NCBI RefSeq assembly: GCF_010093065.1
Contig: NZ_CP048113.1
Span: 1,674,001 to 1,738,000, forward strand
Origin: Chitinophaga agri
GTDB lineage: Bacteria; Bacteroidota; Bacteroidia; Chitinophagales; Chitinophagaceae
Direction: 5' to 3'
Length of the DNA stretch: 64,000 bases
A program made the translations under genes and the position numbers. Shown here piece by piece: positions 2,280 to 40,830 of this stretch (position 1 is its first letter; each line of letters begins with the position of its first letter). Under the pieces are notes generated by a model. The model ran no database searches, was not told the origin of the DNA, and was given only the letters and a program-made list of their open reading frames with translations.

Positions 2280-3452
2280 GTTTTGTAGTTTTTGACAGAT
2301 AGTCATTATTTGTTTACCGTACAAAACAATCTGACAGCGTATTGAGGCACAAGTGTGATTGCCGGGGGTGATTGCTTTGTTTAGCATAGACAGTGACTTA
2401 AAAGCGTTCCAAATAGTAAAGTTGGTCGAAATATTATTAGCAGAAAATACCAACTACTTTGTATTTTTCTTCTTCCGTCCCCATTCTGCCTTGTTGATTT
2501 GAATTATCAATTATCTTAGAACAGACATTACGCCATTCTATACATGTAAAACAATATGTTTATATATTGCTATCCTCAAAATGAGATACTTTTCTGTTGA
2601 TCTATTCTATTTCTATGCAAACAGTCTTCGCAAAAAAAATCTCAAAAGACCTGAAACAGGTATCTCCTAATGGCAATACATACCAAGGTATGGTAAGTAA
2701 CGCTTTCATCACTGTTAAAAGGGCCAGCATTCTCCGGTATATGTTAGACCGGGGTTAGACAACATCTTTGACATAGGGGGACTTGCTATTAAAATAGCAA
2801 ATATGCCATGTTGTATTATAATAAATTACTAATACAATGTAAAACGCAAAATATATCAGGATTTTACATTGTATTTAAGTAATATTTACCAAAAAAAACT
2901 TATCAATATAGTATTGAAATTACTAGCAGTCCGCAACTGCGCCTGCTGAACTTTATACTTAATTTGTGAGAACCATTCTTTGTATACTTTGTCCATAAAA
3001 ACTACCTCGTGAAACTTCAGGATGAATTGATTGCAGGGATAGAGGAAAAAAGGTACTGGAACTTCAATCGGATGGGAACCTTCTGTTTAAATTAGACAAC
3101 TCACTTCAGATGGATTTCTTAATAGCTGTTGCAGCAGCATTGAATATCCACTTTTAGAATGGAGTTGTAAGACTCGCATGTGATAGTTACTTTCCCTTTT
3201 GCTATGTAAATACGTCAAGAGGGATTAACAGACACAGCCACTACATAGCCTAAGAAAAAAGTCCTAAAAGGCTTAAAATCAATCCCCTTCCCTTAATAAC
3301 AGTATACCAAACCTATCAATATCAAAAGAGCTTTTTTTATAGTTTGGCTGCAATTGTAAAAGAGCCAATGAATGCCCGGGGGCTTTCATATCTTGACATA
3401 CTTATAATCCTTAAGAAAGCTTATGCACTCAACTTATTCAAAATCAACACAA
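2280..3452. other. Gene-poor region
   Basis: AT-rich stretch with no convincing gene. A 47-codon reading frame at 2615-2758 (+), beginning MQTVFAKKISKDLKQ, could be a relic or a tiny gene. A further open stretch near 3090-3156 has no plausible start. I see no RNA gene or clear terminator before the repeat that begins near 3453. Confidence 0.4.
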
Positions 3453-3527
3453 GTTGGTTCGAAAACGTTCTGCTACTGGGCACTAAAGTGGAAAGGTCGG
3501 AGATATCTCCGACCTTTCCGCTTTTTA
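3453..3527 (+). repeat. Dispersed T-arm-like/terminator repeat, copy A
   Basis: Contains TTGGTTCGAAAACG, then CTGCTACTGGGCAC, then a near-perfect hairpin (GGAAAGGTCGGAGA ... TCTCCGACCTTTCC) followed by a T run. The same three-part unit recurs at 30335, 31695, 32496, 34772 and 40727. Its hairpin matches the terminator of the tRNA-Leu at 28386. This copy lies about 25 kb from the tRNA and immediately adjoins the intron-like relic. Confidence 0.75.
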
Positions 3528-3529
3528 GG

Positions 3530-4250
3530 TGCATGCTCACTTCTCTGGACAGTTCTTCTACTGCCTGGTGTTGGGATTTGCCCAGCCTGGATGTTAGTTA
3601 GCGCTTCTCCCGGATACATCCCTGCCCGGGCCGCTATGTGCGTCTCTACTATAACACTTCTTTCATGTCTCTGGTACATTTAGTGTTACTAAGATGGTAG
3701 TTCCGTAAACAGACATCGCCCTTCCTTACTAAGTGGCTTTGATAAAGCTAATTCCCACCCTTCTAACGGTACTATGAGGATGCCAAGACAGCCTTCGTCC
3801 TTTTCGTTACCTCCAATTTCTCCCGGTTCGGATATCTCCCCATATCATCTTTTCTTAGCGCTTAACAAGGTGACGACACAGAGCCTGTAAGCACGGTGGA
3901 TTATTCTTGTTCAGTCAATCCAATGAATCGACTTCCGTTTGGAGACGTTATGCACTCCTGTGTTCCTGTATCACCCAGGTCTGCCTTTGACATGTTCTTG
4001 GACCCCTGTCGAATCGTCCCACTTGTCTATTGCGCAGGTTTGATGTTGCCTTAGCTTAGAACGGCTAAAGCTTCAATATACAGAAGCGTTTCGAGGCTCA
4101 ATAGCACACTTTCAGCAGTCGCTGTCTACGCTTCGTGCCATCATCTCTGACAACTACGCAAGACGCGCTTCCGATGGTTCACCAAACCTTGTCTGACAGG
4201 ATTGGCTACCTGTAAGGTAATTTCGAGGTATTTCATAAAAAAATGCCCAC
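3530..4250 (-). pseudogene. Possible 5' part of a decayed group II intron
   Basis: This stretch is more GC-rich than its surroundings, contains no intact long gene and looks like structured RNA when read on the minus strand. It includes a 'CATAGTACC...GAAG' phrase (about 3758-3777) like that preceding the maturase gene in many bacterial group II introns. It is followed by an AGTAAGGAAGGG segment and an apparent ATG around 3700, but the following frame is soon broken. No reverse-transcriptase motif survives. The assignment rests on recollection of intron layout, so it is tentative. A second group II intron remnant, its 3' half, lies at 35.7-36.4 kb. Confidence 0.3.
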
Positions 4251-28385: not shown

Positions 28386-28467
28386 GCCCAGATGGCGAAA
28401 CTGGTAGACGCATTGCGCTTAGAACGCAACGCCGCGAGGTGTGCAGGTTCGAATCCTGTTCTGGGCA
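28386..28467 (+). tRNA. tRNA-Leu (anticodon UAG)
   Basis: Complete cloverleaf. Acceptor arms GCCCAGA/TCTGGGC, D-stem GCG/CGC, anticodon stem TTGCG/CGCAA around loop CTTAGAA (UAG at 28420-28422). The long variable arm CGCC-GCGA-GGTG is typical of class II tRNAs, and the T arm is GCAGG-TTCGAAT-CCTGT. Discriminator A; CCA is not encoded. A strong terminator follows directly. The 3' end and terminator resemble the dispersed repeats that punctuate the next 12 kb. Confidence 0.95.
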
Positions 28468-28473
28468 CAAAAG

Positions 28474-28545
28474 CGGAAAGGTCGGAGAGGTCTCCGACCT
28501 TTTGCTTTTTAAGATTGTCAAGGTCAGCTCTTGGCCTGATTCCCC
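28474..28545 (+). terminator. tRNA terminator plus conserved tail
   Basis: Hairpin GGAAAGGTCGGAGA-GG-TCTCCGACCTTT followed by a T-rich run ending at 28512. The tail AAGATTGTCAAGGTC and the following bases to about 28545 recur after repeat copy D (32569-32600). They recur in altered form after copy F and at 36920. The shared tail shows that the repeats carry sequence from downstream of this terminator, not just a generic hairpin. Confidence 0.8.
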
Positions 28546-28695
28546 CCAAAGATATCATTTTCACTCTCTAATACTATTCATCCATATAATTCATTGCATC
28601 ATCCATAATTCTCTGTATTCGATACATTTTTAAAACATATCCGGATCTTACATTTGCATTGGTAGTTTAGTCATATCCATTTAACAGCACAACTA

Positions 28696-29202
28696 ATGAA
28701 AACAATCGAATTCACAAATCCATGACCATACGACTTATTGTCTTTGATGGATAGATCCCAACCAACGCATATTGAAGGACACATAATCGCGAAGATTATA
28801 TATGCTGCTGTCAACGCTGTTGATGATTCCGTTCGGAGTGGACGGCTGCCAGCCAGACGCTCACCGGCGATACCTGGAAATAAAGCTGTCGGTATTATTG
28901 TCAAAGATAATGATGAGCTATCTACCGGAACCAGCGTAATCGTATCCTGCTTTACAGTTGATGGTCAGATTCAGGGAATATATGTTGATGGTGTATGGCA
29001 GGAATATCTTGTAGTAAAGCCGGAAGAACTGATCCCAATCTCAGAACATATATCGGATGAACAGGTGGCCGCGTTTCCTGTGAGCTTCTTTTCAGCACAG
29101 GCTTGCTTAAACAAGGCGGATTTTCAGCCAGGGAAAAGTATTCTTTCATTAGCAGTAGGCGGCGGTGTTGGTAACGCAGGCATTCAACGAGCCAAAAAAT
29201 AA
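28696..29202 (+). pseudogene. Decayed zinc-type alcohol dehydrogenase / quinone oxidoreductase
   Basis: Starts MKTIEFTNP at 28696, then an in-frame TGA at 28723-28725. The open frame then covers the GroES-like domain (EGHIIAKIIYAAVNAVDDSV, NKAVGIIVKDNDELSTGTSV) and the start of the Rossmann domain (SILSLAVGGGVGNAGIQRA), ending at a stop at 29202. A piece like the later VGG-containing segment follows after the stop. An intact family member has about 310-330 residues, so at least half of the NAD(P)-binding domain is missing. It lies just beyond the tRNA-Leu. Confidence 0.7.
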
Positions 29203-29801
29203 TTGATAGCGTGGGTGGCAACCTAACCGGGGACGCGTACACTCGTTAAGTCGTAACGGTACCAATGGAGAATTGGACACATCTTTAATGGCAGATTTAA
29301 AAATGTCTTCACTCATGACCCAGCGGGGAAGAGACGGCTACTGATTAGCTTGGTGTATTGAAACAAATTCCTCACTATCCATTTTAATAGCGTATCTTAC
29401 ATGTATTCAATAGCAATAGTAAACGCTCCAACTTCTCCGACACACTAATTTCAATTCTTACTACTGCCTTCCTTGATCTTTAATTAACGTAAAAACTAGT
29501 CTTTACATCGAAAGGCTGCGCATATTTCTTTCGATTATGGCAATATCATGCCTTTATGGTACCCACTTCCCTCGTAAACCATGAAACTCTCGCTATTACA
29601 GATATTGCAAAGGAGGAAAATATCGGACAGATTACGGACAAAGCTCCTTTAACTATTTGGTACATGCACTTACAGAGAGTGGTCATGTTCATGCACTCCA
29701 CGGAGATTTTCCAGGTATCTATATTATAACGATTAAAAGGATACAGGAGGGAGAAGAATTCTTAGAACTTTAATTTTTCATTTCTAAAAAAATATCAAAC
29801 A
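29203..29801. other. Intergenic region with gene debris
   Basis: About 600 bases with no intact gene. A short stretch near 29575-29615 (+) translates as ETLAITDIAKEENIG, which resembles the helix-turn-helix of Rrf2 regulators, but it is broken immediately after. No tRNA-like repeat is present here. Confidence 0.35.
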
Positions 29802-30269
29802 ATGAAACATTCAAAAGCTTTTCTAATCGCCAGCTTACTGATTTTTTATGCCTCATCAGTTTTTTCACAAAAGTATAAAACCGCTTCAGATACTGTTAAG
29901 CTGAACGAAGAATATGTATCGGTAAGCAATGATATTGCCGAACTTACGTCTAAACTTACCATTGCTAAAAATAACATGCCTGGTTATCAAACCAAAGCGG
30001 GAGATGCAAATTCTGATGCGCAAAGCAGTGCTAATGCAAGTAGTAAACAGGCATCGAGGGCTACAAATGGTGATATAGGCGATGCGAAAAACGCAAAAAA
30101 GAAAGCAAACAAAGCTTACAGCAATGCCCAGGATGCCAGGGATGCAGGCAATAAGGTAAAAAGGCAGGATAAAAAAATAGCCGACCTTAATTCTCAATTA
30201 GAGAAAAAACAAGCGCGGCTTAGGGAATTAGATGATATGAAATTGGCCATAGTGAATAAATCTCTGTAG
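29802..30269 (+). CDS. Secreted coiled-coil protein, unknown function
   Basis: 155 residues. Signal peptide MKHSKAFLIASLLIFYASSVFSQ. The mature part is Lys/Ala/Asn-rich with heptad-like stretches (EEYVSVSNDIAELTSKLTIA; KKIADLNSQLEKKQARLREL), giving two coiled coils separated by a low-complexity Ala/Ser/Asn linker. No enzymatic motif. It is the first intact gene after the tRNA-Leu, and repeat copy B begins 65 bases after its stop. Confidence 0.65.
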   Translation: MKHSKAFLIASLLIFYASSVFSQKYKTASDTVKLNEEYVSVSNDIAELTSKLTIAKNNMPGYQTKAGDANSDAQSSANASSKQASRATNGDIGDAKNAKKKANKAYSNAQDARDAGNKVKRQDKKIADLNSQLEKKQARLRELDDMKLAIVNKSL

Positions 30270-30334
30270 AAAGATACTGATTTTTAAAACTACGATCAAC
30301 GTCACTGACACAACCTACTAAGAATCAGACTGAC

Positions 30335-30404
30335 CTGGTTCGAAAATGATTCGCTACTGGGCACAAAAAACAGAAATCCGCTCTAGTAGCGGATTTTTTT
30401 TGTG
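30335..30404 (+). repeat. Dispersed repeat, copy B
   Basis: CTGGTTCGAAAATGATTCG, then CTACTGGGCACAAAA, then a hairpin ATCCGCT-CTAGT-AGCGGAT ending in a long T run. The hairpin is of the same subtype as copies E and G. It separates the coiled-coil gene from the 215-residue cassette gene. Confidence 0.8.
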
Positions 30405-30552
30405 CATATTCCCCTTAACATAATTCCTTCTTATTCAACCTATAATAGGTTCGATTCCTGAAATTGTGTTACACCAAACAATCCATTCACCTACAAATAT
30501 CTATTATGTACAAATGCGGATTTAGACTAACTTAGTCGAAGTATTATCCTAT

Positions 30553-31200
30553 ATGAATTATATTGAAGAAATAAGGGCCGGTCTTAAAGAAACTTTTGAT
30601 CAAAGAATAAAAGAAATCGATGCTGAAACTTTTATCTCTCCTTCTGGCAATTTCAGATTAGAAGCAAACGAATTATACGATCAGAAATATGCCATAACAA
30701 GGGCTCAGATTTATCAGCAATCAACCAATGAAAAAATATTTGACTTCTTGGTTAACGAAGACAGAATCCTTTACTCTTGGCTGAAGAAAAACAACACAGA
30801 GTACATGGTCTGCGCAGAAGATCTGTTTGGAGGACAAACCGTCATTGATCTGACTAATAAAAAAATGGCAAGCTATTCTCCCAAAACCGAAGGTTATATC
30901 TGGACGAATTTTCATTTGTCACCTAACGGAAAAATATTAGCCACAATGGGTTGTATTTGGGCCGGACCATTTTCTATGAAGATATTTGACTTTACGAATC
31001 CAATGACGCTACCATTGCCTGAAATAAAGGAGATTGCCTTGATTGGTAACGACGAGGAGATCATTAGATGGATTGACAATGACACGCTTCAGATGAAAGG
31101 GTTTCAAAGAGAGTATGAATATGAATATGACGATAAAGGTCGGATGAGCGTCAAATCAGTAAAAGAAACTCCCACAGAACGCATTGTCAGTATACGTTAA
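30553..31200 (+). CDS. Cassette gene of unknown function (intact copy)
   Basis: 215 residues, no signal peptide, probably cytosolic. It starts MNYIEEIRAGLKETFDQRI and has a middle portion rich in Trp and beta-strand-like segments (YIWTNFHLSPNGKILATMG, PFSMKIFDFTNP), reminiscent of a small propeller-like or WD-type blade. No family recognised. The upstream 150 bases and the gene itself are duplicated at 34845-35639, where the copy has decayed. Its neighbour downstream is an Imm1-like gene, so an immunity role is plausible by context only. Confidence 0.65.
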   Translation: MNYIEEIRAGLKETFDQRIKEIDAETFISPSGNFRLEANELYDQKYAITRAQIYQQSTNEKIFDFLVNEDRILYSWLKKNNTEYMVCAEDLFGGQTVIDLTNKKMASYSPKTEGYIWTNFHLSPNGKILATMGCIWAGPFSMKIFDFTNPMTLPLPEIKEIALIGNDEEIIRWIDNDTLQMKGFQREYEYEYDDKGRMSVKSVKETPTERIVSIR

Positions 31201-31248
31201 AATAGTCACATCTCGGGCCATTTTTTTAAGTCTTATCGGTTTATACAT

Positions 31249-31638
31249 ATGAAACTTAGTGTTGATAGCTGGATCGAAAATCGTAATTATAGCAATGACA
31301 AAGATATCAAGGAAAGCGATGAAGCCGTTACTGCCCTCCAGACTCTAAACGGGAAAAACGTAACACAGTTAATCGTAGGTGACATTAATGGATTTATGCT
31401 AATAGGCGGTGGCCCTGAACTATTTGTCGTAACCCAAGTGGTTGGAGAGGATAAAGTATTCTTCAACCTGATTAACCCGGGGTGTGTTTCAGATGAAGAA
31501 GAAATTACCCTCGTAACCGGTGGGCAGGCAGGCGGCTTTCCTAAAAAAAAATGTGTGCCGCTGGCACTTGCAGAACAGGCATTGACATACTACGTTAAAC
31601 ATGGCGATCGCTCACCGTCACTGAAATGGGAAGAATAA
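31249..31638 (+). CDS. Imm1-like (DddI-type) immunity protein
   Basis: 129 residues. The pattern fits the Imm1 family (PF14430), known from DddI, which neutralises the DNA cytosine deaminase toxin DddA. There is a central strand pair VGDINGFMLIGGGPELFVV, then a TGGQAGGFPKK loop. The C-terminal helix and tail ALAEQALTYYVKHG...LKWEE is like the DddI ending. It begins 48 bases after the 215-residue gene and is followed by repeat copy C. No toxin gene is adjacent, so it appears to be an orphan immunity gene protecting against toxins of other bacteria. Confidence 0.65.
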   Translation: MKLSVDSWIENRNYSNDKDIKESDEAVTALQTLNGKNVTQLIVGDINGFMLIGGGPELFVVTQVVGEDKVFFNLINPGCVSDEEEITLVTGGQAGGFPKKKCVPLALAEQALTYYVKHGDRSPSLKWEE

Positions 31639-31694
31639 TAACTGATGTCATTTATTAAAATCTATTCGCGCAACTTATTTATTATCAATATAAT

Positions 31695-31755
31695 TTGGTT
31701 CGAAAGTGTTTCACTACCGGACAAAAAAGGCAAGAGCCGCTCTACGAGCTTGTCG
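31695..31755 (+). repeat. Dispersed repeat, copy C (degenerate)
   Basis: TTTGGTTCGAAAGTGTTTCA, then CTACCGGACAAAAAA, and a weak hairpin with arms CAAG/CTTG. The 25 bases upstream (CAACTTATTTATTATCAATA...) also match copies A and D, so the repeat extends left of the TTCGAA core. Confidence 0.7.
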
Positions 31756-31810
31756 TTATTGACATAACAAAGGTGAAACATAAACGAGCCAAAAAATTGC
31801 AAGATTTATA

Positions 31811-32454
31811 CTGGCAAAAAAGTCTGTTTATACTTTTAAGAACTATCTGGGTTATGATGGAAAAAAGTTCGATGAAGAAAAAGCATTAGCAGTGCTGGAT
31901 GAAATTGGCGTAAATGCAACAAATGACTTAGGAGAAACGCCTCTTATTGTTGCTGCTTACTTAAATCGGATTAACGTTTTAAAGAAGATAATTGGTGGAG
32001 TCGATAATGTTGACTACAAAGTAGCCGGCACATTTACCGAATCAGCATTACTAGAAGCCTGTGCACATAGAAGGCTGGACAGCATTAAACTATTAGTAGA
32101 TGCTGGGGCAAGATTGGAACAAGTCGATAGGTTCGGACTAACGCCGCTTGCAAAGATCTTTACCAATATTTTTTCAGATCCCCTTCCATGTGCAACATAT
32201 TTGATATCCAAAGGGGCGAAGATCACGGCTAAGGTAATGGAATTAGGTATGAGTTGGAACCAAGAAAAGATGAGCAGGTATTTGACGAAGAAGTGACTCG
32301 GAAATTACTTGAAGATCTCAATAAAATATCAAAAGGGAGTAGCCCCTATCTGGAGCACGACGTTTATGATAGGATCATTGAAGGAATTATTGAATGGTAC
32401 CTAAAGCACCCAAAACAGATCTCACATACGAAAAATGATAAGTTATACTGCTAA
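31811..32454 (+). pseudogene. Ankyrin-repeat protein gene, start lost and frameshifted
   Basis: Frame one gives two to three ankyrin repeats (NDLGETPLIVAAYLNRINVL, SALLEACAHRRLDSIKLLVD, DRFGLTPLAKIF) and ends at 32296. The frame is open upstream to a CTG at 31811, where AKKSVYTFKNYL begins; no ATG is available, and a mutated start is likely. Near 32260 a frame change continues as FDEEVTRKLLEDLNKISKG to 32454. Ankyrin-repeat proteins of this size are frequent in toxin-immunity loci. An ATG at 31892 gives a shorter 134-residue product. It is flanked by repeat copies C and D. Confidence 0.55.
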
Positions 32455-32495
32455 CATGCCTTTTAGTCGTTTAACTTCTCAATTATCAATATCAT

Positions 32496-32600
32496 TTGGT
32501 TCGAAAATGATTCGCTACTGTGCACAAAAGCGGAAAGGTCGGAATATTTCCGACCTTTTGCTTTTTAAGATTGTCAAGGTCTGCGCTGGGCCTGCTTATC
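32496..32600 (+). repeat. Dispersed repeat, copy D with tRNA-like tail
   Basis: ATCATTTGGTTCGAAAATGAT is a 7-base inverted repeat around GGTTCGA. Then follow CTACTGTGCACAAAAGCGG, a GGTCGGAA/TTCCGACC hairpin with T run, and the tail TTTTTAAGATTGTCAAGGTC. Hairpin and tail match the tRNA-Leu terminator region at 28467-28530 nearly base for base. Confidence 0.8.
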
Positions 32601-32658
32601 AGATCCAAGATGAATTTTGTAAAAAGGCTGTTCTAATAACTAACAATGAGCCAATATA

Positions 32659-33010
32659 TTAGCAGCTAAAATTGATAAAATATACTTTTCCCCTCTTCAA
32701 ATTTATCATAAAATTCTTCTGCAACTCCTCCACTTCTTTTTCGTTGTCGATATTAAGATAAGTAGCTGCTCTTAACACATCCTCCTTCTTTATATAAAAT
32801 TTGAATTGAGGGAAGTCTGCGTAGAAATTGCCTGTCATGACATATTTAATTGCTCTAAATATGCCAGCCCAGCTTCGGATAATCCATAATAGAATATATA
32901 ATCTCTATACGGATAGATTTTCTCGATTATTTCGTCATAAGGAATATTCAGGTTGAAATACTGCAAGGTTATCTGTATTACAAAATTAAGTAGTTTAAAA
33001 CGACCAGTTC
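32659..33010 (-). pseudogene. Remnants of one or two small genes
   Basis: On the minus strand an open stretch without start ends in YYGLSEAGLAYLEQLNMS at about 32835. A 59-residue frame starting MTGNFYADFPQFKFYIKKED overlaps it and runs from 32838 to 32659. Both look protein-like, but the first lacks a start codon after an upstream stop. They may be pieces of a single immunity-type gene or a short real gene plus a relic. No family recognised. Confidence 0.3.
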
Positions 33011-33029
33011 AACTGAAAGTAGAGATATT

Positions 33030-33470
33030 CTACTTGGCAATTTGATCAACCTTAGCAGAAGATGCCACAGCAGCGGTTTTCTTCTTCTTTGATGCTCTCT
33101 TGATTGACCATTCAAAAAATTCCGATAGTGCCTGATTGAGACCCAACCCGGTTTCTGTTAGACTGTATTCAACCATTGGGGGAACTACCGGGTAAACCTT
33201 TCGCTGGATCAACTCCGCCTCTTCCAACTTTTTGAGAGTTTGCACCAACATTTTTGGTGAAACAGGATTGACCTCTCTTAGCAGATTGCTGGTTCGCTTT
33301 GGCCCCTGCATTAAAGATAGTAATACAGGAAGAGTCCATTTGTCAGCGAGCAACATCAGTGCCTCATGGAGGACACAATCCTCATCAACCACGATCCTCT
33401 CATAACCAAGATTTGTGATTTGACTTAATATTGACATTTTTTTTTCTTCGCCTGATGGTTCCTGCTCCAT
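33030..33470 (-). CDS. HxlR-family winged-helix regulator
   Basis: 146 residues. The core is CVLHEALMLLADKWTLPVLLS, then LLREVNPVSPKMLVQTLKKLEE (recognition helix) and the wing KVYPVVPPMVEYSLTETG. The Cys in the N-terminal helix is the residue that senses electrophiles or oxidants in characterised members. A Lys/Ala-rich tail follows. It diverges from the metallo-beta-lactamase-fold gene with about 90 bases between starts and probably regulates it. The start could also be the ATG twelve codons downstream (MSILSQ). Confidence 0.88.
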   Translation of the reverse strand: MEQEPSGEEKKMSILSQITNLGYERIVVDEDCVLHEALMLLADKWTLPVLLSLMQGPKRTSNLLREVNPVSPKMLVQTLKKLEEAELIQRKVYPVVPPMVEYSLTETGLGLNQALSEFFEWSIKRASKKKKTAAVASSAKVDQIAK

Positions 33471-33559
33471 ATTTCACCATTTGGTAAGTAATACACTAAA
33501 AAGTGCCTTATTTCAAATCTACGGCATTCCTAATAGCTTTACCAAAAATACAAGAAATC

Positions 33560-34420
33560 ATGACAGTTATTAAACAAACTCCATTGTTGCCAGGCACATT
33601 ACAATGGACTATCGGGAACAGAAAGGTGACGGTACTCTCAGACAGTCATTTTAATGCGGGAGAAGAATTTTTTACAAACTTACCAGAAGAAGGTGTTCGA
33701 TCAACCTTAATTGAAGCTTTCAGACCAGAAAGCCTAATTCTTACAACCAGTATTTTCTTGATCGAATCAGAAGAACATGAGCCTGTATTGATCGATACCG
33801 GTATGGGCACTAAAATGGCTCCGCTCCTAACCGGAAAATTAATGGAGGCATTGGCCTTTATCGGAAAAAAACCAGAAGATATCGGTATCATATTGATAAC
33901 TCACTTACATGGTGACCACTTCTATGGTCTACTTGATCCGCAAAAAAAGAAAGCATTTCCTAATGCCCAAGTCTGGTTATCTAAAACTGAATACGATTAT
34001 TGGTTCAATAACCCTCAATTAAGTGAGCAGGAAAAATCCAATACTGATGATGCCCGTGAGGCATTGGCACCATATGAGATGCTGGTTGATGATGGCAAAG
34101 AAATCGTACCGGGAATTACTTCAGTACCACTGCCGGGACACACGATGGGGCAAACGGGTTTTCTTCTAACCACTTCTGAGGAAAAACTACTATTCTGTGC
34201 AGACATATTGAATCTGCCTGCTATTCAGGTGATATATCCTGAGGTCGGCTTTGCTACCGACGCTGACCATGACCTGGCTGTAAAAACACGAAGGGATACG
34301 TTGAGCAAAGCCGCAGAAGAACGGTTGTTATTGGCCGGTCCCCATTTTGAATTTCCATGTCTGACCTACGTCAAAGTACAAGGTTTTGGTTTTCAATTGG
34401 TTCCTAAGCAATATATATAA
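33560..34420 (+). CDS. MBL-fold metallo-hydrolase
   Basis: 286 residues from the ATG at 33560 (MTVIKQTPLLPG); the in-frame ATG at 33503 adds a poor extension. Zinc motif THLHGDHFYGL (HxHxDH), later His in LPGHTMGQTGF, Asp in LFCADILNL and a final His in AGPHFEF. The family includes lactonases and other hydrolases (Lactamase_B, PF00753). A signal peptide is absent, so the product is cytosolic. The divergent HxlR regulator suggests induction by the toxic or signalling substrate. A terminator hairpin follows at 34444. Confidence 0.88.
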   Translation: MTVIKQTPLLPGTLQWTIGNRKVTVLSDSHFNAGEEFFTNLPEEGVRSTLIEAFRPESLILTTSIFLIESEEHEPVLIDTGMGTKMAPLLTGKLMEALAFIGKKPEDIGIILITHLHGDHFYGLLDPQKKKAFPNAQVWLSKTEYDYWFNNPQLSEQEKSNTDDAREALAPYEMLVDDGKEIVPGITSVPLPGHTMGQTGFLLTTSEEKLLFCADILNLPAIQVIYPEVGFATDADHDLAVKTRRDTLSKAAEERLLLAGPHFEFPCLTYVKVQGFGFQLVPKQYI

Positions 34421-34443
34421 CCTTTATAACCGTTTTCTTTTAC

Positions 34444-34475
34444 GGGGCTTATCGTAAGTTTGAGAGGCCCCTTTT
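34444..34475 (+). terminator. Hairpin terminator after the metallo-hydrolase gene
   Basis: GGGGC ... GCCCC arms with a long loop, followed by TTTT. Confidence 0.5.
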
Positions 34476-34485
34476 CAATTTTATA

Positions 34486-34824
34486 TTGTTATACCAGCCC
34501 TACAGGGTGCAAATTGAGCTATATTTAGCACTGACAAATTCTATAAAGAAGAAAGGAAATCCAGATAAAACCTGTCTCAGGAAATATTTTAGTAATCCAA
34601 CTATAACCTTTTCTAAGCAGAGACCAAACTTCGATTCCTTAAAGTTCATCAGTAGCCTTATAGCAATTTATACGGGCAAAACCTGCGCACTGGTTAATAT
34701 AGAACAAAAGTACACTCTTGATAAAAAAATAGAAGAATTAATTAACTTAATAACTGATGGTATTCCGGATAATTGGTTGGAGAAACTACCGCTACTGGGC
34801 ACTAAAACAGAAAATCCGCTCTAG
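34486..34824 (+). CDS. Doubtful small reading frame running into repeat copy E
   Basis: 112 residues, Lys/Asn/Ile-rich, soluble; middle section KFISSLIAIYTGKTCALVNI. The last 19 codons lie inside repeat copy E (PLLGTKTENPL is the repeat translated), so the natural end of the gene has probably been replaced. It may be the truncated remnant of a cassette gene. No family recognised. Confidence 0.25.
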   Translation: MLYQPYRVQIELYLALTNSIKKKGNPDKTCLRKYFSNPTITFSKQRPNFDSLKFISSLIAIYTGKTCALVNIEQKYTLDKKIEELINLITDGIPDNWLEKLPLLGTKTENPL

Positions 34825-34845
34825 TAGCGGATTTTCTGTTTTAGG
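34772..34845 (+). repeat. Dispersed repeat, copy E
   Basis: TTGGTTGGAGAAACTACCG is a damaged core. It is followed by CTACTGGGCACTAAAACAG and the hairpin AAAATCCGCT-CTAGT-AGCGGATTTT. The hairpin and the following 150 bases match copy B and the region upstream of the 215-residue gene. Confidence 0.8.
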
Positions 34846-34995
34846 CATAATTCCCTCTTTCCATAACCAGCTCTTATTCAACATATAACAGGTTCTATTC
34901 CTGAAATGTTATTATATCAAAAAACTCGTTCACATACAAATATAACTCATACGCAAATACGGATTTAGACTAACTTAGCCGAAGTATTATCCTCT

Positions 34996-35639
34996 ATGAA
35001 TTATATTGAAGAAATAAGAGCTGGTCTTAAAGAAACTTTTGATCAAAGAATAAAGGAGGCCGATGGTGAAACGTTTATCTCTCCATCAGGGAATTTCAGA
35101 TTAGAAGCGAACGTTGTACGATCAGAAATATGCCATAACAAGAGCTCAGATTTACCAGCAATCAACCAATGAAAAAATATTTGACTTCTTGGTCAACGAA
35201 GACAAGATCCTTTACTCTTGACTAGAAACAAACAACACAGAATACATGGTCTGCGCAGAAGATTTGTTTGGAGGACAAACCGTCATCGACCTGACTAATA
35301 AAAAGATGGCAAGCTATTCTTCCAAGACGGACGGTTACATCTGGACGAATTCCCATTTGTCACCTAACGGAAACCTATTAGCCACAATAAGGCGTATTTG
35401 GGGCGGGCCATACTTTATGAAAATATTTGACTTTACGAATCCCATGATACTGCCATTGCCGGAAGTAAAGGAAATTGACCTTTGGACAATGACGAAAGAT
35501 TATTCGCTGGATTGATAATGAAACGCTGCAGATGAAAGGGTTTCAACGAGAATACCAACGTGAATATGACGATAACGGCGGGATGAGAGTCAAACCAGTA
35601 AGGGAAACTCCTATCGAACGCACTGTCAGTATACGCTAA
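34996..35639 (+). pseudogene. Decayed duplicate of the 215-residue cassette gene
   Basis: Aligns with 30553-31200 from start (MNYIEEIRAGLKETFDQRI) to stop (SIR) and is 4 bases shorter. Two 2-base deletions account exactly for the length difference: near 35113 (GAATTATAC to GTTGTAC) and near 35480-35510. A TGG-to-TGA change (35219-35221) truncates the frame as well. The upstream 150 bases are also duplicated, so the unit copied was repeat plus promoter plus gene. Confidence 0.88.
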
Positions 35640-35764
35640 GATGTTTACATCATTGTAATCGTCAGCTTTGTCTGTAAAATAGTTAAAACGCGGAAAGTAA
35701 TTTACTTATAATCAAGCATATGCGGTTCCGGGTAGAGCAGATCGTTACCTCCCCGCTCCCCCAC

Positions 35765-35799
35765 AGATCCGTGCGAGCAGCTTTCCTGCACACGGTTCC
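35765..35799 (-). ncRNA. Group II intron domain V-like hairpin
   Basis: On the minus strand GAACCGTGTGCAGGAAAGC is followed by TGCTCGCACGGATCT, a hairpin of domain V size with the usual bulge and GAAA-like loop. It lies just downstream of the reverse-transcriptase stop codon, where domain V belongs. Domain VI-like sequence and the probable 3' end follow to about 35710. Confidence 0.65.
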
Positions 35800-35804
35800 T
35801 ATGT

Positions 35805-36430
35805 TTATGATTTCGATGATTGATAACTGTGATATACCTTCGGTCTTGTAAGGGGTATCCATTCCATCGTTAGCTTTGCTATTTTAGCCCATGTCCAGAC
35901 ACGCTTACCTCCTCGATGGTTTAGCCATTTATGGAGCAAGCGTTTAGTCCGGTTATAGTACGTATGCAGCTTCCTGATATTGAATGTTATACCACAGTAG
36001 GCATAGTGGCCACGTAGTTTCTGGTTCAGTGATGCTATAAGTTCTGCTATGGGTAGCTTGTGTCTATAGAACTTGATCCAGTCACTAAGTCGCTTCAATG
36101 CCGCATTCAGTTTCTTACTGCTTGTTTTACGCTTAAGGATACGTTTTCCATTTCGGCTTTTACTTATGTAGTAAGTAAAACCTAAGAAGTCGAACGTTGT
36201 ACGGGGATGCCCTTCTCCATCATCGTCCAGGTCTATTAATCTGGTCTTGTCTGGATGTAGGGTCATCCCGTACTTACTTAACCGTTTGAGTAAAACCTCC
36301 ATCACTCGTAATGGATCTTCCTTGTTGGTAAATCCCAACAAAAAGTCATCTGCAAAACGAATCATAAAGCTGTCATCCTTCAGTAATCGCTGGATTTGCT
36401 CTTTGAACCAGATATCCAGTATACTACCTG
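35805..36430 (-). pseudogene. Group II intron reverse transcriptase/maturase, C-terminal half
   Basis: Coding sequence resumes near 36430 as ILDIWFKEQIQRLL and continues through FMIRFADDFLLGF, the RT active-site box (FADD in place of the usual YADD). Next come RT6-7 (TLHPDKTRLIDLDD; TFDFLGFTYYISK) and the thumb/maturase X region (LIASLNQKLRGHYAYCGI) to a stop at 35805. RT domains 0-4 and the whole 5' part of the intron are missing. The N-terminal boundary joins directly to a transposase fragment, so the element is dead. Confidence 0.85.
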
Positions 36431-36811
36431 GGTGAAAATAGGTTGTAACGTTTTCTGAAGACGCTTGCCGCGGAAGCGGTTAATAGTATTATGGTCAGGG
36501 GTGCTCATTCCACTTAACCACATATAATGTATATGCTGATTAACGGCATCTTCTATTTTACGACTACTGTATATATTATTAATGTAGGAATAAACCAGGA
36601 CCTTTAATAACATTCCAGGATGGTAGCTACTTGTCCCTCCTGGCTTGTACTGTTGCAGCAGCGTTGTAATATCCACCTTATCCAGCATCTCATTCACGGT
36701 TCTGACTGGATGATTGGCTGGAATCAGATCATTTAGATCTGGTGGTAATAGCATACCCTGATGTTGGTGATTGCTTTTAAATACAACTGATAATGTCTTG
36801 GCTCTTGCCAT
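36425..36811 (-). pseudogene. IS1182-type transposase, N-terminal fragment
   Basis: Starts MARAKTLSVVFKSNHQHQG and contains the IS1182/IS5-type N-terminal transposase domain: LIPANHPVRTVNEMLDKVD, SSYHPGMLLKVLVYSYINN, SSRKIEDAVNQHIHYMWLSG and DHNTINRFRGKRL. The catalytic DDE part is absent: after QPIFTQ the sequence switches to group II intron. An intact protein would be about 450-500 residues. Confidence 0.85.
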
Positions 36812-37058
36812 ACTCCTTATAACACAACAAGCATCATATGGTTAGCAAAAAGGCACCTTTTATTAAAAAAACTCCATAAAAATAAGAAGCTGTCCCAATT
36901 ACTTTTGAGACAGCCCCGTTTTAAGATGTCAAGGTCCACTTATTAATCCTATCTGTATACAGCATTAAAGATATGTTGGATTGATACTCAGTCATTTTGG
37001 CCGACAGCATCGCCCGCAGTAAGACGTAGCCTTGCGTCATTACCTTTAATGATCATCA
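36812..37058. mobile_element. Insertion-sequence upstream end and repeat tail
   Basis: Holds the leader side of the IS. The inverted repeat GCTGTCCCAATT...GAGACAGC at 36889-36914 is probably the IS terminus. Immediately outside it lies GTTTTAAGATGTCAAGGTCC (36918-36937), which matches the tail of the tRNA terminator and repeat copy D. On the other side of the composite, near 35686, AAAACGCGGAAAG resembles the start of the same terminator. The IS/intron composite therefore probably sits inside another repeat copy. Confidence 0.5.
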
Positions 37059-37667
37059 TTAGCTGGGAACCATTGATGGTAAAAGAATGTTGCAAACTGC
37101 ATTGACCTTAAATGAAGTATCCTTTAACTGGTAAGCGAGATCAATGGTGTACATGTTTAGTGCTGCCTTAGAGGACTGATATAAGGCCGCTTTATGCGAA
37201 TAGTACTTCCAGGTCGGATCACTGTGTAAAGTCAGCGAGCTGCCGCTAGACGAGACATTGACAATTCGTGGCTCAGTTGATTTTTTCAACAGGTCAATAA
37301 AAAACTGTGTTACACGAATTACGCCGTAAAGATTGGTATCAAACACTTTCTTGTACTGTTCAATGCCTGCCTCTAATGAAGACTGCGGAAAGCCACCGTT
37401 GATGCCCGCATTATTAACGAGCACATCCAACATATCCGTTTTGCTGCCAATCGTCTCACGCGCATTCTGAACAGACTGCTCATCGGTTACATCCAACATA
37501 ATGGCCTCTACCTGGTCCAGACCAACGGCTTTCAGCTTTTCTACAGCTGCCTTTCCATTTTCTAAATTCCGGCTGCCAAGATATACGTAGTAGCCATGTT
37601 GCAACAACGCGCGTGCGGTTTCAAAGCCGATGTCTTTGTTCGCACCGGTAATTAATGCCTTTTTCAT
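37059..37667 (-). CDS. Short-chain dehydrogenase/reductase, C-terminally truncated
   Basis: 202 residues from the ATG at 37667, one base after the stop of the upstream NmrA-like gene. Rossmann motif LITGANKDIGFETA (the usual TGxxxGIG has Asp-Ile-Gly), DVLVNNAGI, catalytic Ser in VNVSSSGSS, and Tyr-x3-Lys in YQSSKAALN. The family normally has about 240 residues ending with a PG-x-VxT segment. Here VNAVC is followed by an unrelated NILLPSMVPS and a stop, so the last 40 residues are lost. The IS/intron composite begins about 150 bases further. It may be inactive. Confidence 0.8.
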   Translation of the reverse strand: MKKALITGANKDIGFETARALLQHGYYVYLGSRNLENGKAAVEKLKAVGLDQVEAIMLDVTDEQSVQNARETIGSKTDMLDVLVNNAGINGGFPQSSLEAGIEQYKKVFDTNLYGVIRVTQFFIDLLKKSTEPRIVNVSSSGSSLTLHSDPTWKYYSHKAALYQSSKAALNMYTIDLAYQLKDTSFKVNAVCNILLPSMVPS

Positions 37668-37668
37668 G

Positions 37669-38580
37669 CTATTTAATTTGCTGATGATAGACCTGCGCAA
37701 ATTCTTTAGCAAAGTCCGTAAACTTCGTTTTCCCTGGCACAGGTTTGTAGCGATATAAGTCTTCGTATAATGAACCGCTTGCTTGTGCTGCCTGCATGGC
37801 AATAAATCCGCTCGCGATCCATTCGTTCATGCCCGCAGCTAACATGCCACTCAGCATTTGATCCGGAGGAATTACATTCCATTTAAGTTCCGGCTTACCG
37901 ATGGCTTCCCCAAGTATCCGGGCAATTTCGTTTGGAGATATTTCATCGCTTACCGCATAATGTACAGTCCTACTGTCAAAAGGCTTCTCCATCTCCTCAG
38001 CGATCAGTGCTGCAATATCTTCTGCCGCTACCCAGGGCTCCTTTTTATCGCCTCCGTAAGTAGAAACAATAGAATGTTGATTCCTGATCGAATCAAGGTT
38101 CCTGTACAAATTGGTGTAGAATCCTACGGGCCTGATGTATTTAATACAAACGTCTTCGGGCAATTTATCTAAGATGCCTTCCACTTTATTGTGCAGGTAA
38201 AGGCTGCCGGTGCCCCGATCTGTATGAGCTCCAATGCTGCTTAGGTGTACCACTCGCTTAACGCGGGATTGCTCGACTGCTATTTTATAATTATTACCAA
38301 TCTTATCAAATGCAGCTACGAAGTCCACACTTTTGTCATAAATACTGCCTATGCCTTCCCAGGCTTCCATCAGGTAGACAATATCAGCTCCGGCAAAGGT
38401 CCTGGTGAGGAAATCGAGATCGAAAAAAGATCCCACTGCTGCTCTGGCGCCTAATGCCTCAATGGCTGATTGCCGCTCACTTTTGCTGGTGATGACCGTT
38501 ACACTATGTCCCCTTTCCACAAGCCGGGTGGCTAAGGGTTTTCCAATATGGCCCAAGGAGCCCGTGATAATGATATTCAT
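37669..38580 (-). CDS. NmrA/SDR-type NAD(P)-binding protein
   Basis: 303 residues from the ATG at 38580; the frame to 38613 adds eleven poor residues. NAD(P) motif IIITGSLGHIGKPLA at residues 2-16 (GxxGxxG), then AVEQSRVKRVVHLSSIGAH and VCIKYIRPVGFYTNL, as in NmrA-like and NAD(P)H:quinone oxidoreductase-like atypical SDRs. It lacks the classical Tyr-x3-Lys dyad, so it may be a redox sensor or an isoflavone-reductase-like enzyme. It is transcribed ahead of the truncated SDR in a two-gene operon. Confidence 0.82.
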   Translation of the reverse strand: MNIIITGSLGHIGKPLATRLVERGHSVTVITSKSERQSAIEALGARAAVGSFFDLDFLTRTFAGADIVYLMEAWEGIGSIYDKSVDFVAAFDKIGNNYKIAVEQSRVKRVVHLSSIGAHTDRGTGSLYLHNKVEGILDKLPEDVCIKYIRPVGFYTNLYRNLDSIRNQHSIVSTYGGDKKEPWVAAEDIAALIAEEMEKPFDSRTVHYAVSDEISPNEIARILGEAIGKPELKWNVIPPDQMLSGMLAAGMNEWIASGFIAMQAAQASGSLYEDLYRYKPVPGKTKFTDFAKEFAQVYHQQIK

Positions 38581-39073
38581 AATCAACTTGTTGTTATGAT
38601 TGCAAAATTGCATAGTTCCAGCCTTCCTGAATTAACCTAATTGAGCTTTTTCATAACCGAAATGAGGGTCTATTATCCAAATCGGGCAATTCGTATGTGA
38701 GTGTGAGTGCCATGGGGCAATTTCCTGGAAGGAAAGATACCAAAGAGGAATGGCAAGCACCTTTCTGATGACGCCATCTTAACAAAACTGTGAAATGGTA
38801 TAGGTCTGACGAGTGCTGATGTCAAAGAAGCCATTACCAGATCTGCTTTTCAACATATGATAGAAGTAGGTGGGTTGGGCAGCTGTTATTGCGCCGGGAG
38901 CACTGTGCACACAACAGACTATAGCCTGTCATGTAATGCTCACTCACCAAAATTTATTTTTGGTGATCTGCAACTACGGCGGAGAAAATTCTTACAGATA
39001 TATTAATTGTTTTTATATTTTGCAAGCACATAGTTTTGTATAAAAATACCCTATAATTACACCCGAGACATTT
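38581..39073. other. Intergenic region
   Basis: About 490 bases between divergent genes. No intact gene, no repeat core and no clear hairpin. It must contain the promoters of the NmrA-like gene and of the SUKH gene. Confidence 0.35.
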
Positions 39074-40612
39074 ATGACAAACCAAGAAAAAATAAAGCTC
39101 CTAAGACGGAAATACATATCCGCCAATGTTAACCTGGATAATATTTACAACGCGATCAGAGCGAAACAAAACGTTCCGCTGGAGTTAATAGAGGAAACTG
39201 TTGCGGATGTAGATACAATGGGGGCGCTATTCCCCATGCAGTTTGAAGACAAGTATGGAGCAACGGGGGAACCGGCAGTGTATATCAATATGCGCGATCC
39301 GGAAGATGAGCCAACGCAGATGAGCGGTGCAAACCGCGTATTAGCGGACTCCTTTGCGCGTACCACTATTGAAGACATTAAGTTCAATGCGCTGAACATA
39401 GTATTGGCCTACGAACAGGATAAAGCCATAGTGGAAAAATATAAGCCGCTTTTTCTGCAACAGGCTGCCTGGTGTTTTAACCATTTGTCGGAAAAACCAA
39501 CTTTAAGCGAATGGGAACAAGACAAGCTGGTGCTGTATGCTAATCAACTGGCATATTACACCTATTTTGGCGAGCAGCAAACCGATAAGCTACACCAGGC
39601 CCTGGAAGTTTTGCAGGTGGCGTACGGCTACGCTGACTGGCACCGGCACGGCTATATAAAACATACCTATGTGGATGTCCTGCTAAAGCTCGGCAGTATC
39701 GAGGAGGCATATGCTGTTATAACAGAAGGGCTCGAATATAATGAGAAATTTGAGCTTTTTCAGGAGTATAAGAATGATGAACAGTTTATAAAGTGGCTGC
39801 AGGAGTCAGACAACGAAAAAGCAGTCGCCATGAGGCGCCGGCAGCAGGCAAAGCAGGAGTTGCTGGACGCGATTATTGCAGAAGAAAAGCATATCCGGCA
39901 TTCGTTTAAGAATCCCCTACATCCGCTGGTTGTACAACATGCCGAAAATTTGATCGCGATAAAGCAATATATATTATCCCTTCGCCAGCGCGCATTAGCG
40001 AAGACGAGTCTCAATAAACTGGAGGAATACAAGAAGAACTATATCCTGTCTACGGCCACAGTGCAGGAGCTGGATGAATTTGAAGCCACATATAGTGTGT
40101 CATTACCTGATGAATATAAAGCCTATCTGCTGGAGATAGGTACCGGTGGGGTCTACTTTATGGAAGGCGATGTGCCCGGCATTCAGGAATTAGGAGAAGA
40201 AGAGATCAGCAGACTGAAAAAGCCTTTCCCAATAACGAGCGATAAAATACATGAGGTACAGAATTATTATGGTGTCAAAGCCTGGGTATATTCCGATAGT
40301 AACAGCTGGATAGAAAATGGCGTTTTGCCGGAAGGTACAGATATGCAAGCCTTGTTTGGCCTACCTGAAGAATCCAGACTAAATGACGGATGTATCTCCC
40401 TCGGCTACTCCAGTGGAAGGAACGAATTAGTATTGATAGCGAATGGAGAATTTGCCAATGAGGTGTGGTCAGACCGCCTGGGATACGGAGCAGCGATGCG
40501 TGGCTGTTTTGGTGCTGCCTCTGCCGAGCGACTTACATTGCTACCGTTCATCGCAGCCAGCTTGCGTGTAAAGGTAGAGAAGCAGGAAGACGACAACGGC
40601 GATTGGTTGTAA
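39074..40612 (+). CDS. SUKH (SMI1/KNR4) domain protein with a long helical N-terminus
   Basis: 512 residues, cytosolic. Residues 1-320 are helical with TPR-like pairs (QALEVLQVAYGYADW, HTYVDVLLKLGSIEEAYAVI) and a charged coiled segment (AMRRRQQAKQELLDAIIAEE). Residues about 330-490 are a SUKH domain: VQELDEFEATYSVSLPDEYK, AYLLEIGTGGVYF, then a beta-rich part with LGYSSGRNELVLIANGEF. SUKH proteins are the commonest immunity proteins of nuclease-type polymorphic toxins, though some have other roles. The N-terminal extension is longer than usual for an immunity protein. Repeat copy F follows 115 bases after the stop. Confidence 0.75.
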   Translation: MTNQEKIKLLRRKYISANVNLDNIYNAIRAKQNVPLELIEETVADVDTMGALFPMQFEDKYGATGEPAVYINMRDPEDEPTQMSGANRVLADSFARTTIEDIKFNALNIVLAYEQDKAIVEKYKPLFLQQAAWCFNHLSEKPTLSEWEQDKLVLYANQLAYYTYFGEQQTDKLHQALEVLQVAYGYADWHRHGYIKHTYVDVLLKLGSIEEAYAVITEGLEYNEKFELFQEYKNDEQFIKWLQESDNEKAVAMRRRQQAKQELLDAIIAEEKHIRHSFKNPLHPLVVQHAENLIAIKQYILSLRQRALAKTSLNKLEEYKKNYILSTATVQELDEFEATYSVSLPDEYKAYLLEIGTGGVYFMEGDVPGIQELGEEEISRLKKPFPITSDKIHEVQNYYGVKAWVYSDSNSWIENGVLPEGTDMQALFGLPEESRLNDGCISLGYSSGRNELVLIANGEFANEVWSDRLGYGAAMRGCFGAASAERLTLLPFIAASLRVKVEKQEDDNGDWL

Positions 40613-40726
40613 AAGCGAACCATACCGATGCAACATGCAGCCAATGATCATTCAATGCCAGGAAATAATCTCATCGATTTCTGTGAACGGCGTAAGCAAC
40701 GTAAGTTTTCTTAATGATCAGCACCA

Positions 40727-40830
40727 ATTGATTCGAACACACTTCACTACCAAGCAAAAAAGCGGAAAGGTCGGAGAACTACTCCGACCTTTCCGCTTTT
40801 TCAATACTATCACGGTCCTTCTTGACCTGC
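40727..40830 (+). repeat. Dispersed repeat, copy F with tail
   Basis: ATTGATTCGAACACACTTCA, then CTACCAAGCAAAAAAGCGG. The hairpin is GGAAAGGTCGGAG ... CTCCGACCTTTCC with a T run; the tail ATCACGGTCC...GACCTGCTTAT is alignable with copy D's tail. It is the last copy found in the window, 12.3 kb from the tRNA-Leu. Confidence 0.75.

What the first reader, a model, noticed from the sequence alone, without database searches (positions are those of the whole stretch)
28386..40830. Orphan-immunity cassette array punctuated by a T-arm-like/terminator repeat
Seen: at least five copies of one unit (30335, 31695, 32496, 34772, 40727) separate small genes. Each copy has a TTGGTTCGAA core, then CTACTGGGCAC, then a terminator hairpin. 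The genes between them include an Imm1-like gene, an ankyrin-repeat pseudogene, a duplicated unknown gene and a SUKH gene. Known: Imm1, SUKH and ankyrin proteins are immunity families, and Bacteroidales carry orphan-immunity (acquired interbacterial defence) arrays. Inference: this is a cassette array that gains and loses immunity genes at the repeats. One copy lies 25 kb away at 3453, so the repeat is mobile on its own or very old.
Basis: partly seen in the sequence, partly recalled or inferred. Interest (0 to 1): 0.8.

Follow-up and report, generated by a model that had tools for sequence, protein, structure and literature searches.

The report
tRNA-Leu anchored gene-cassette arrays
Next to leucine tRNA genes, Chitinophaga bacteria collect small swappable DNA cassettes that are separated by a repeated insertion site for a phage-like integrase; cassettes move between species, but they carry all sorts of accessory genes rather than mainly immunity genes.

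Summary
The repeats are real, but they are attachment (att) sites, not immunity-gene punctuation. Each is a ~54-nt site whose last 8 bases (CTGGGCAC) are the 3' end of tRNA-Leu, usually followed by a fresh terminator. The window array starts at tRNA-Leu(TAG), 28386-28468; the copy at 3453 belongs to a second array behind tRNA-Leu(CAA), left of the window. The site occurs in 37 of 79 Chitinophaga genomes. In the window's genome 15 of 15 hits lie downstream of, and on the strand of, one of six tRNA-Leu genes. A tyrosine integrase family sits directly behind tRNA-Leu at 25 of 28 loci checked. Homology between arrays of different species ends at att sites in both partners far above chance (17 right ends of 61; null mean 0.04). 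T2- and T3-ended intervals hold no full-length integrase (0 of 85); T1-ended ones do (9 of 32). So the arrays look like stacks of non-autonomous cassettes, probably moved in trans by tRNA-Leu elements, some with defence operons. Cargo is general: SUKH genes are not enriched (1 of 95). Precedents exist (tRNA-targeted additive islands, ssrA islands, CIMEs); this is a new, well-resolved variant.

The parts
28386..28468 (+). tRNA-Leu (anticodon TAG); its 3' end CTGGGCAC (28461-28468) is the primary attachment site and start of the array
   Evidence: ARAGORN; Rfam tRNA 59.7 bits
28469..28560 (+). left end (class T2) of cassette 1: hairpin AAAGGTCGGAG..CTCCGACCTTT plus GTCAAGGTC..GGCCTG; sits where the terminator of the tRNA is expected
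   Evidence: sequence; class alignment
28469..30364 (+). cassette 1 (155-aa ORF at 29802-30269); shared with G095:C8 between two att repeats, 91-94% identity in two blocks, G095 copy 652 bp longer, right end coincident with the att, first 69 nt not aligned, flanks unrelated
30311..30364 (+). att repeat 1 (38.5 bits)
30365..31724 (+). cassette 2, T3 left end; 215-aa gene 30553-31200 and Imm1-like gene 31249-31638; its two halves match two neighbouring cassettes in G075 (probable fusion after loss of an att)
31671..31724 (+). att repeat 2 (34.1 bits, CTACCGGACAA variant)
31725..32525 (+). cassette 3; ankyrin-repeat gene 31892-32296, probably decayed, continuing as 32254-32454 in another frame
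32472..32525 (+). att repeat 3 (41.6 bits)
32526..34802 (+). cassette 4, T2 left end; HxlR regulator 33030-33470(-) and metallo-beta-lactamase-fold hydrolase 33503-34420 (best NCBIfam model AidB lactonase, far below its cut-off)
34749..34802 (+). att repeat 4 (27.6 bits, diverged left half)
34803..40757 (+). cassette 5 (5.96 kb), T3 left end; decayed second copy of the 215-aa gene (~34997-35640), group II intron and transposase fragments, two reductase-like ORFs on the - strand (37059-38613; named by eye, not scanned singly), SUKH-1 gene 39074-40612
40704..40757 (+). att repeat 5 (23.9 bits, decayed core CTACCAAGCAA)
40758..40806 (+). T2-class terminator after the last recognised att
3430..3483 (+). 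att repeat of the neighbouring array anchored at tRNA-Leu(CAA), G000:C1:1669330-1669414 (left of the window)
3484..3535 (+). T2-class terminator after that att

Best explanation
The region is a tRNA-Leu-anchored array of integrated gene cassettes. A tyrosine integrase (~364 aa, Phage_int_SAM_5 + PF00589) recombines CTGGGCAC at the 3' end of tRNA-Leu with the same octamer in the element's own att site. Each insertion restores the tRNA 3' end, brings a new terminator behind it and pushes older insertions downstream, so the repeats are the old junctions (element right arm + CTGGGCAC + next element's left end). Two tiers exist: T1-ended elements, some with the integrase and (in the two examined) defence operons, and T2/T3-ended cassettes in which no full integrase was found. 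T2/T3 cassettes share the right-hand att arm and are most likely moved in trans by T1-type integrases. Shown: anatomy, link to tRNA-Leu, integrase position, inter-species sharing of cassettes with att boundaries, lack of full integrase in T2/T3. Inferred: strand exchange inside CTGGGCAC, mobilisation in trans, circular intermediates. In the window's genome only a fragment of the integrase was found, so this array is probably static now. The confidence is for the att-bounded cassette array on tRNA-Leu; the trans step alone I put near 0.45.
For: tRNA-Leu at 28386-28468 ends GGTTCGAATCCTGTTCTGGGCAC; repeats end ...CGCTACTGGGCAC. In G000, 15 of 15 R1 hits at E<=1e-4 lie within 27 kb downstream of, and on the strand of, six tRNA-Leu genes. 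Of 71 repeats in fetched segments holding a tRNA-Leu, 67 do so. 37 of 79 genus genomes carry the site; order-wide 3 of 248 genomes, 2 of 125 genera. Integrase relatives (45-100% identity): of 28 loci checked, of 30 fetched, 25 have tRNA-Leu directly upstream and the other 3 follow a repeat or CTGGGCAC. Full-length integrases >=75% identical occur in 9 of 37 genomes with repeats and 0 of 42 without (Fisher 6e-4; threshold chosen afterwards); any relative at E<=1e-20 in 26 of 37 and 16 of 42. Boundaries: 17 of 61 inter-genome HSPs have right ends within 60 bp of an att in both partners, null mean 0.04, maximum 1 in 500; left ends 6, null 0.06, maximum 2. Cassettes shared with unrelated flanks, e.g. 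1.09 kb G075/G096 at 94-95%, 1.35 kb G082/G014 at 87-89%. Integrase-like sequence: T1 12 of 32 (9 full length), T3 0 of 56, T2 1 of 29 (fragment); Fisher 3e-7. All six tRNA-Leu genes of G000 with this 3' end carry T2/T3 ends.
Against: No excision or circle was observed. 36 of 61 HSPs have no right end and 46 of 61 no left end at an att in either partner, left ends fit less well than right ends, and HSPs are not all independent. Only 9 of 37 repeat-bearing genomes hold a close full-length integrase; G000, G095, G096, G014, G025 and others do not, so trans-mobilisation is inferred across genomes. T2/T3 left arms differ from T1, so another recombinase could move them. In six repeat-free genomes about 7 of 19 tRNA-Leu genes also carry T1-, T2- or T3-like hairpins by eye, so these ends alone do not prove an array. 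4 of 71 judged repeats are not behind a tRNA-Leu in the fetched stretch, and 121 of 192 could not be judged. T classes are regex calls; 43 of 160 intervals fall in none, and intervals may span missed sites.
Confidence: 0.8

Rival explanations
1. Plain tandem accretion and decay (CIME model): each cassette is the shrunken remains of a full tRNA-Leu integrative element that lost its integrase; nothing small moves by itself. (A variant of the best explanation: it differs only in the trans step.)
For: Integrase fragments sit in several intervals, including G000:C1:2608391. Tandem accretion with decay is the documented route for tRNA islands (PMC5704250, passages; PMC3146451, passages).
Against: T2 and T3 have their own conserved ~100-nt left ends and hold 0 full integrases in 85 intervals. 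Integrase-free 1-2 kb cassettes are shared between species with unrelated flanks.
Confidence: 0.35
2. Orphan-immunity (acquired interbacterial defence) array: repeats punctuate and shuffle immunity genes.
For: Imm1, SUKH-1 and ankyrin genes lie between the window repeats. 2 of 3 Imm1 hits in 16 genomes are inside arrays.
Against: 1 of 95 SUKH hits in arrays, 0.5 expected. Listed families of 150 scanned cassette proteins are mixed. The two Imm1 cassettes are homologous, hence one event class.
Confidence: 0.05
3. A conventional integron or super-integron (IntI, attC hairpins recombined as single strands).
For: Short cassettes of diverse cargo, one repeat per cassette, primary site at one end.
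Against: The associated integrase matches no NCBIfam model (that this library holds an IntI model is recalled) and has a Phage_int_SAM_5 domain. The primary site is a tRNA gene. ORFs lie on both strands (165 of 350 with the array). attC folding was not tested.
Confidence: 0.03
4. The repeat is a T-arm-like RNA or terminator element spread for regulatory reasons, with cassette structure incidental.
For: Terminator-like hairpins follow most sites (129 of 158); the site carries GGTTCGA as in tRNA T-arms.
Against: Homology between species breaks at the sites, and the integrase family is linked to the same tRNA.
Confidence: 0.03

Closest known systems
Dehalococcoides ssrA genomic islands (PMC3146451; passages read)
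   Same: Tandem islands downstream of one RNA gene, bounded by a direct repeat of its 3' end; 16 with an integration module and 15 without, which the authors call possible cis-mobilizable elements
   Different: Serine recombinase and tmRNA target; 20-bp direct repeat; here a tyrosine integrase, several tRNA-Leu genes per genome, and distinct end families for integrase-free cassettes
Additive flexible genomic islands at tRNA genes (Alteromonas, PMC4119200; Methylophilaceae fGI-2 with repeats of the last 20 nt of tRNA-Lys, PMC10872708; passages read)
   Same: A tRNA acts as insertion target for stacked variable gene cassettes; recurring tRNA 3'-end repeats
   Different: In the Methylophilaceae case the repeat is a plain tRNA copy; here it is a hybrid with a conserved non-tRNA arm. 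The passages read describe no two-tier end classes
CIMEs / tandem accretion of ICEs and IMEs (review PMC5704250; passages read)
   Same: Integrase-less units keeping att sites, stacked at a tRNA 3' end
   Different: CIMEs are described as decayed ICEs/IMEs; T2/T3 cassettes have their own conserved ends and appear in several species
Riemerella anatipestifer 10K genomic island (PMC6764341; passages read)
   Same: Bacteroidota integrase with an intN1_C-like domain, shown to integrate and excise an island at an att site
   Different: A single island of 12 ORFs; the passages read name no tRNA-Leu target and no cassette array
Tycheposons (as described in PMC10872708, passages; original paper recalled only)
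   Same: tRNA-associated cargo elements with a tyrosine recombinase
   Different: Described as 4-200 kb cargo-carrying transposons, not arrays of small integrase-free cassettes with att repeats
Integrons
   Same: Arrays of small cassettes, one recombination site each, integrase at or near the primary site
   Different: No IntI model match, primary site is a tRNA, genes on both strands

Membership tests
tRNA-targeted additive genomic island / tandem accretion at a tRNA 3' end | An intact tRNA at one end and repeats of its 3' end between units | tested here: met
   (the tRNA-identical part of the repeat is only ~8 bp)
tRNA-targeted additive genomic island / tandem accretion at a tRNA 3' end | Cognate site-specific recombinase linked to the tRNA | tested here: met
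   25 of 28 integrase loci directly behind tRNA-Leu; in the window genome a fragment only
tRNA-targeted additive genomic island / tandem accretion at a tRNA 3' end | Units vary between genomes | tested here: met
   (between species; strains of one species not available)
CIME (cis-mobilizable element) | att-bounded unit lacking integrase, derived by decay of an ICE/IME | tested here: inconclusive
   Full integrase absent from T2/T3, but conserved own ends argue against simple decay
CIME (cis-mobilizable element) | Observed mobilisation in cis with an adjacent ICE | not testable with these tools
   needs excision assays
Integron | IntI integrase | tested here: not met
   Array-associated integrase: no NCBIfam match (presence of an IntI model there is recalled), Phage_int_SAM_5 + PF00589 in Pfam
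Integron | attC single-strand hairpin sites | not tested
   No attC model was run
Orphan-immunity (AID-like) array | Enrichment of immunity genes among the units | tested here: not met
   SUKH 1 of 95 in arrays, 0.5 expected; cargo mixed; Imm1 2 of 3 but one cassette. Other immunity families were not searched one by one

The most novel reading that the evidence does not exclude
An integron-like capture system evolved from a phage-type tRNA integrase: families of non-autonomous small cassettes (T2, T3; median interval about 3 kb) with dedicated end sequences, mobilised in trans between species by tRNA-Leu elements that carry defence operons. Each incoming cassette also supplies the tRNA's transcription terminator, so every insertion re-engineers the tail of an essential tRNA gene.
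Probability: 0.45. Interest if true: 0.75.

Novelty: new variant of a known kind. Interest (0 to 1): 0.55.

Why it matters
It gives large-genome Chitinophaga a defined, testable route for acquiring single accessory genes outside integrons and transposons. It predicts where new genes will be found (behind tRNA-Leu), how they are bounded, and which integrase to assay. It also turns a puzzling 'T-arm plus terminator' repeat into a readable record of past insertions, and links small passenger cassettes to larger elements, two of which were seen to carry restriction-modification and Septu-type defence genes.

Tried and rejected
Protein-coding reading of the att left arm: in one frame it reads ..NLLIINxxWFENxPLLGT, but upstream open frames are short (median 9 codons) and the three-base periodicity of conservation is weak (515 of 10000 column permutations reach it); rejected.

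Orphan-immunity specificity: rejected for SUKH; for Imm1 the number is too small.

A tRNA-like folding of the repeat was not pursued: from GGTTCGA to CTGGGCAC the repeat is 5 nt longer than the tRNA.

The 113-aa ORF before the integrase (L136:7948-8289) matched no Pfam or NCBIfam model and overlaps the TGACA direct repeats of the T1 end, so it may not be a gene.

No PDB relative of the integrase by sequence at E<=0.001. The phage and plasmid collections hold only <60% relatives; the 16 records listed are 24.8-30.5% identical. Literature: the searches listed no paper whose title or abstract start describes such arrays in Chitinophaga; (Chitinophaga + integrase + tRNA-Leu) found no paper. Subscription papers are not held.

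Corrections to my notebook: entry 4 says 24 of 28 integrase loci; recounting one search gives 25 of 28, and the identity range of these loci is 45-100%, not 43-100%. Entry 4's '245 other-order genomes' should read: 248 genomes drawn from the order, 3 with hits. Entry 3's 'all downstream' holds for 67 of 71 judged repeats.
Full report
OBSERVATION. In 42 aligned copies the consensus is TAAnTTnTTnATAATCAAnAnnAATTGGTTCGAAAACnTTCCGCTACTGGGCAC. ARAGORN and Rfam place an intact tRNA-Leu(TAG) at 28386-28468; its last bases TTCTGGGCAC match the end of the repeats. It and several repeats are followed by the same type of terminator.

DISTRIBUTION. The window lies in a single-contig 7.97 Mb genome. A sequence-only model (R1, 42 copies) hits 37 of 79 genomes of the genus at E<=1e-3, up to 24 copies each. 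In an order-wide draw of 248 genomes 3 have hits: G000, one same-genus genome and one weak hit in another genus of the family. The 15 G000 hits all lie within 27 kb downstream of, and on the strand of, one of the six G000 tRNA-Leu genes that end in CTGGGCAC. In 53 assembled segments (1.53 Mb, chosen around earlier hits) a refined profile finds 192 copies at E<=0.05. Of 71 copies in segments that contain a tRNA-Leu, 67 are downstream on its strand and 4 are not (two each in G081 and G027); 121 could not be judged.

INTEGRASE. PF00589 hits in ten genomes include 368-codon frames in or at the head of arrays; none of the G000 hits is near its arrays. The one in G012 (L042:13633-14727) is Phage_int_SAM_5 + Phage_integrase. 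One search fetched 30 loci of relatives; I checked 28 (45-100% identity; the two left out are fragments). 25 of 28 have a tRNA-Leu directly upstream on the same strand; of the other three, two follow a repeat and one a CTGGGCAC without tRNA. Full-length relatives >=75% identical are in 9 of 37 repeat-bearing and 0 of 42 repeat-free genomes; any relative at E<=1e-20 is in 26 of 37 and 16 of 42. G000 keeps only a 55%-identical 108-residue piece in its 2.6-Mb array. More distant integrases (~60%, G074 and G087) have a different right att sharing AATCCAGTTCTGGGCAC with tRNA-Leu(CAG); in three other loci of more distant integrases no second CTGGGCAC site with a tRNA-like flank was seen in the fetched stretch (G093, G088, G101). 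Three Niastella loci and one of Flaviaesturariibacter also have the integrase behind tRNA-Leu.

CASSETTES MOVE. 160 intervals between neighbouring sites were taken, from 0.15 to 35 kb. All-against-all comparison of 49 oriented stretches (same strand, E<=1e-20), leaving out same-genome pairs, the near-identical G013/G086 pair and matches <500 bp or <75%, leaves 61 HSPs in 43 genome pairs. In 17 the right end lies within 60 bp of an att in both partners (null mean 0.04, maximum 1 of 500); for left ends 6 (null 0.06, maximum 2). 36 of 61 have no right end and 46 of 61 no left end at an att in either partner, and some HSPs show the same cassette in several genomes. Of 23 pairs that I chose for a flank check, 20 (two of them within one genome) show no flank homology and 3, all G013/G086, are syntenic. 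The window's first cassette is shared with G095, where it lies between two repeats; its first 69 nt do not align. The Imm1 half of cassette 2 and the 215-aa half match two neighbouring cassettes in G075.

ANATOMY OF THE ENDS. The right-hand arm (left part of each repeat) is common to the classes. After CTGGGCAC I distinguish three left-end classes (regex assignment). T1: TGTAAGTnATTGATTTACA hairpin plus TGACA direct repeats. T2: AAAGGTCGGAG hairpin, often plus GGCCTGCTTATC. T3: CCGCTC..GAGCGG hairpin plus, ~88 nt on, ATAATCA...GGTTCGATTCC, which resembles the right-hand arm; an 11-mer within 2 mismatches of GGTTCGA[AT]TCC occurs 30-200 nt after 45 of 206 sites, against 28 of 1030 random stretches. 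Integrase-like sequence is in 12 of 32 T1 (9 full length; these intervals are 5-35 kb and may span missed sites), 0 of 56 T3, 1 of 29 T2 and 2 of 43 unclassified intervals. I read the TGACA and ATAATCA repeats as integrase arm sites; that is inference.

TERMINATOR REPLACEMENT. All six CTGGGCAC-ending tRNA-Leu genes of G000 are followed by T2 (three) or T3 (three) ends. In six genomes without R1 hits, 19 such tRNA-Leu genes show, by eye, about 12 other terminators (five of one GACAAATCGG-like type) and about 7 T1-, T2- or T3-like hairpins, four of these in G005. So insertion appears to swap the tRNA's terminator, but the hairpin class alone does not prove an array.

CARGO. 350 ORFs >=100 aa in intervals <=8.1 kb fall in 257 clusters, 165 of 350 on the array strand. 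I scanned 150 of the 257 cluster representatives: no Pfam family reaches more than 5 members and no PADLOC family more than 2; among the 25 families shown are reductases, AraC regulators, esterases, transposases and reverse transcriptases. The two T1 elements examined, in G080 and G034, carry type I RM subunits and Septu PtuA/PtuB matches, the first also a TmtA-like protein. SUKH: 1 of 95 in mapped arrays against 0.5 expected; two more (G075:C1:4359835, G078:C13:332055) lie within about 3 kb of an outermost or lone repeat. Imm1: 2 of 3 in arrays, the same cassette.

VERDICT. It is a stack of att-bounded cassettes on tRNA-Leu; immunity genes are passengers. The kind is known (PMC3146451, PMC4119200, PMC10872708, PMC5704250; passages read; PMC6060240 passages, use the same additive-island terms). 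The two-tier organisation with integrase-free end families, many arrays per genome and inter-species exchange with matched boundaries is what I did not find described in the passages read. Mobilisation in trans remains to be shown.

Noticed in passing
window 3993-4205 (-) and 35726-35800 (-): Group II intron structures (Rfam), both inside or next to the arrays; the first lies ~0.5 kb after the att and terminator at 3483-3535.
   Followed up: no
G013:C1:4275084-4277557 and three further places in G013: A trio of tandem tyrosine recombinase genes (frames of about 428, 351, 358 codons) repeated at four loci, one of them a few kb from a cassette array; looks like a recombinase-in-trio element (name recalled).
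   Followed up: no
L136, L135, L129 (T1 elements in G080 and G034): A module on the opposite strand behind the integrase, similar in both elements (in G080: Cys-rich 228 aa, 122, 272, 130 aa, HEPN 304 aa, histidine-kinase-like 245 aa), mostly without Pfam match, followed by differing defence operons.
   Followed up: partly
G000:C1 tRNA-Leu genes at 1608604, 1653623, 2597499, 6968136: The genome holds four genes with the tRNA-Leu(CAG) 3' end, against two or three in the six repeat-free genomes with matches; array activity may be tied to tRNA-Leu duplication.
   Followed up: no
att left arm (consensus): The arm contains GGTTCGA, the tRNA T-loop sequence, but 5 nt further from CTGGGCAC than in the tRNA; many T3 ends repeat it on the other side. 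Why it mimics the T-arm is unexplained.
   Followed up: partly
G005:C3 tRNA-Leu genes (163408, 297965, 327357, 1171010): Four tRNA-Leu genes carry T1- or T2-like ends although the genome has no R1 hit and no integrase relative at E<=1e-20: possibly lost or diverged arrays.
   Followed up: no
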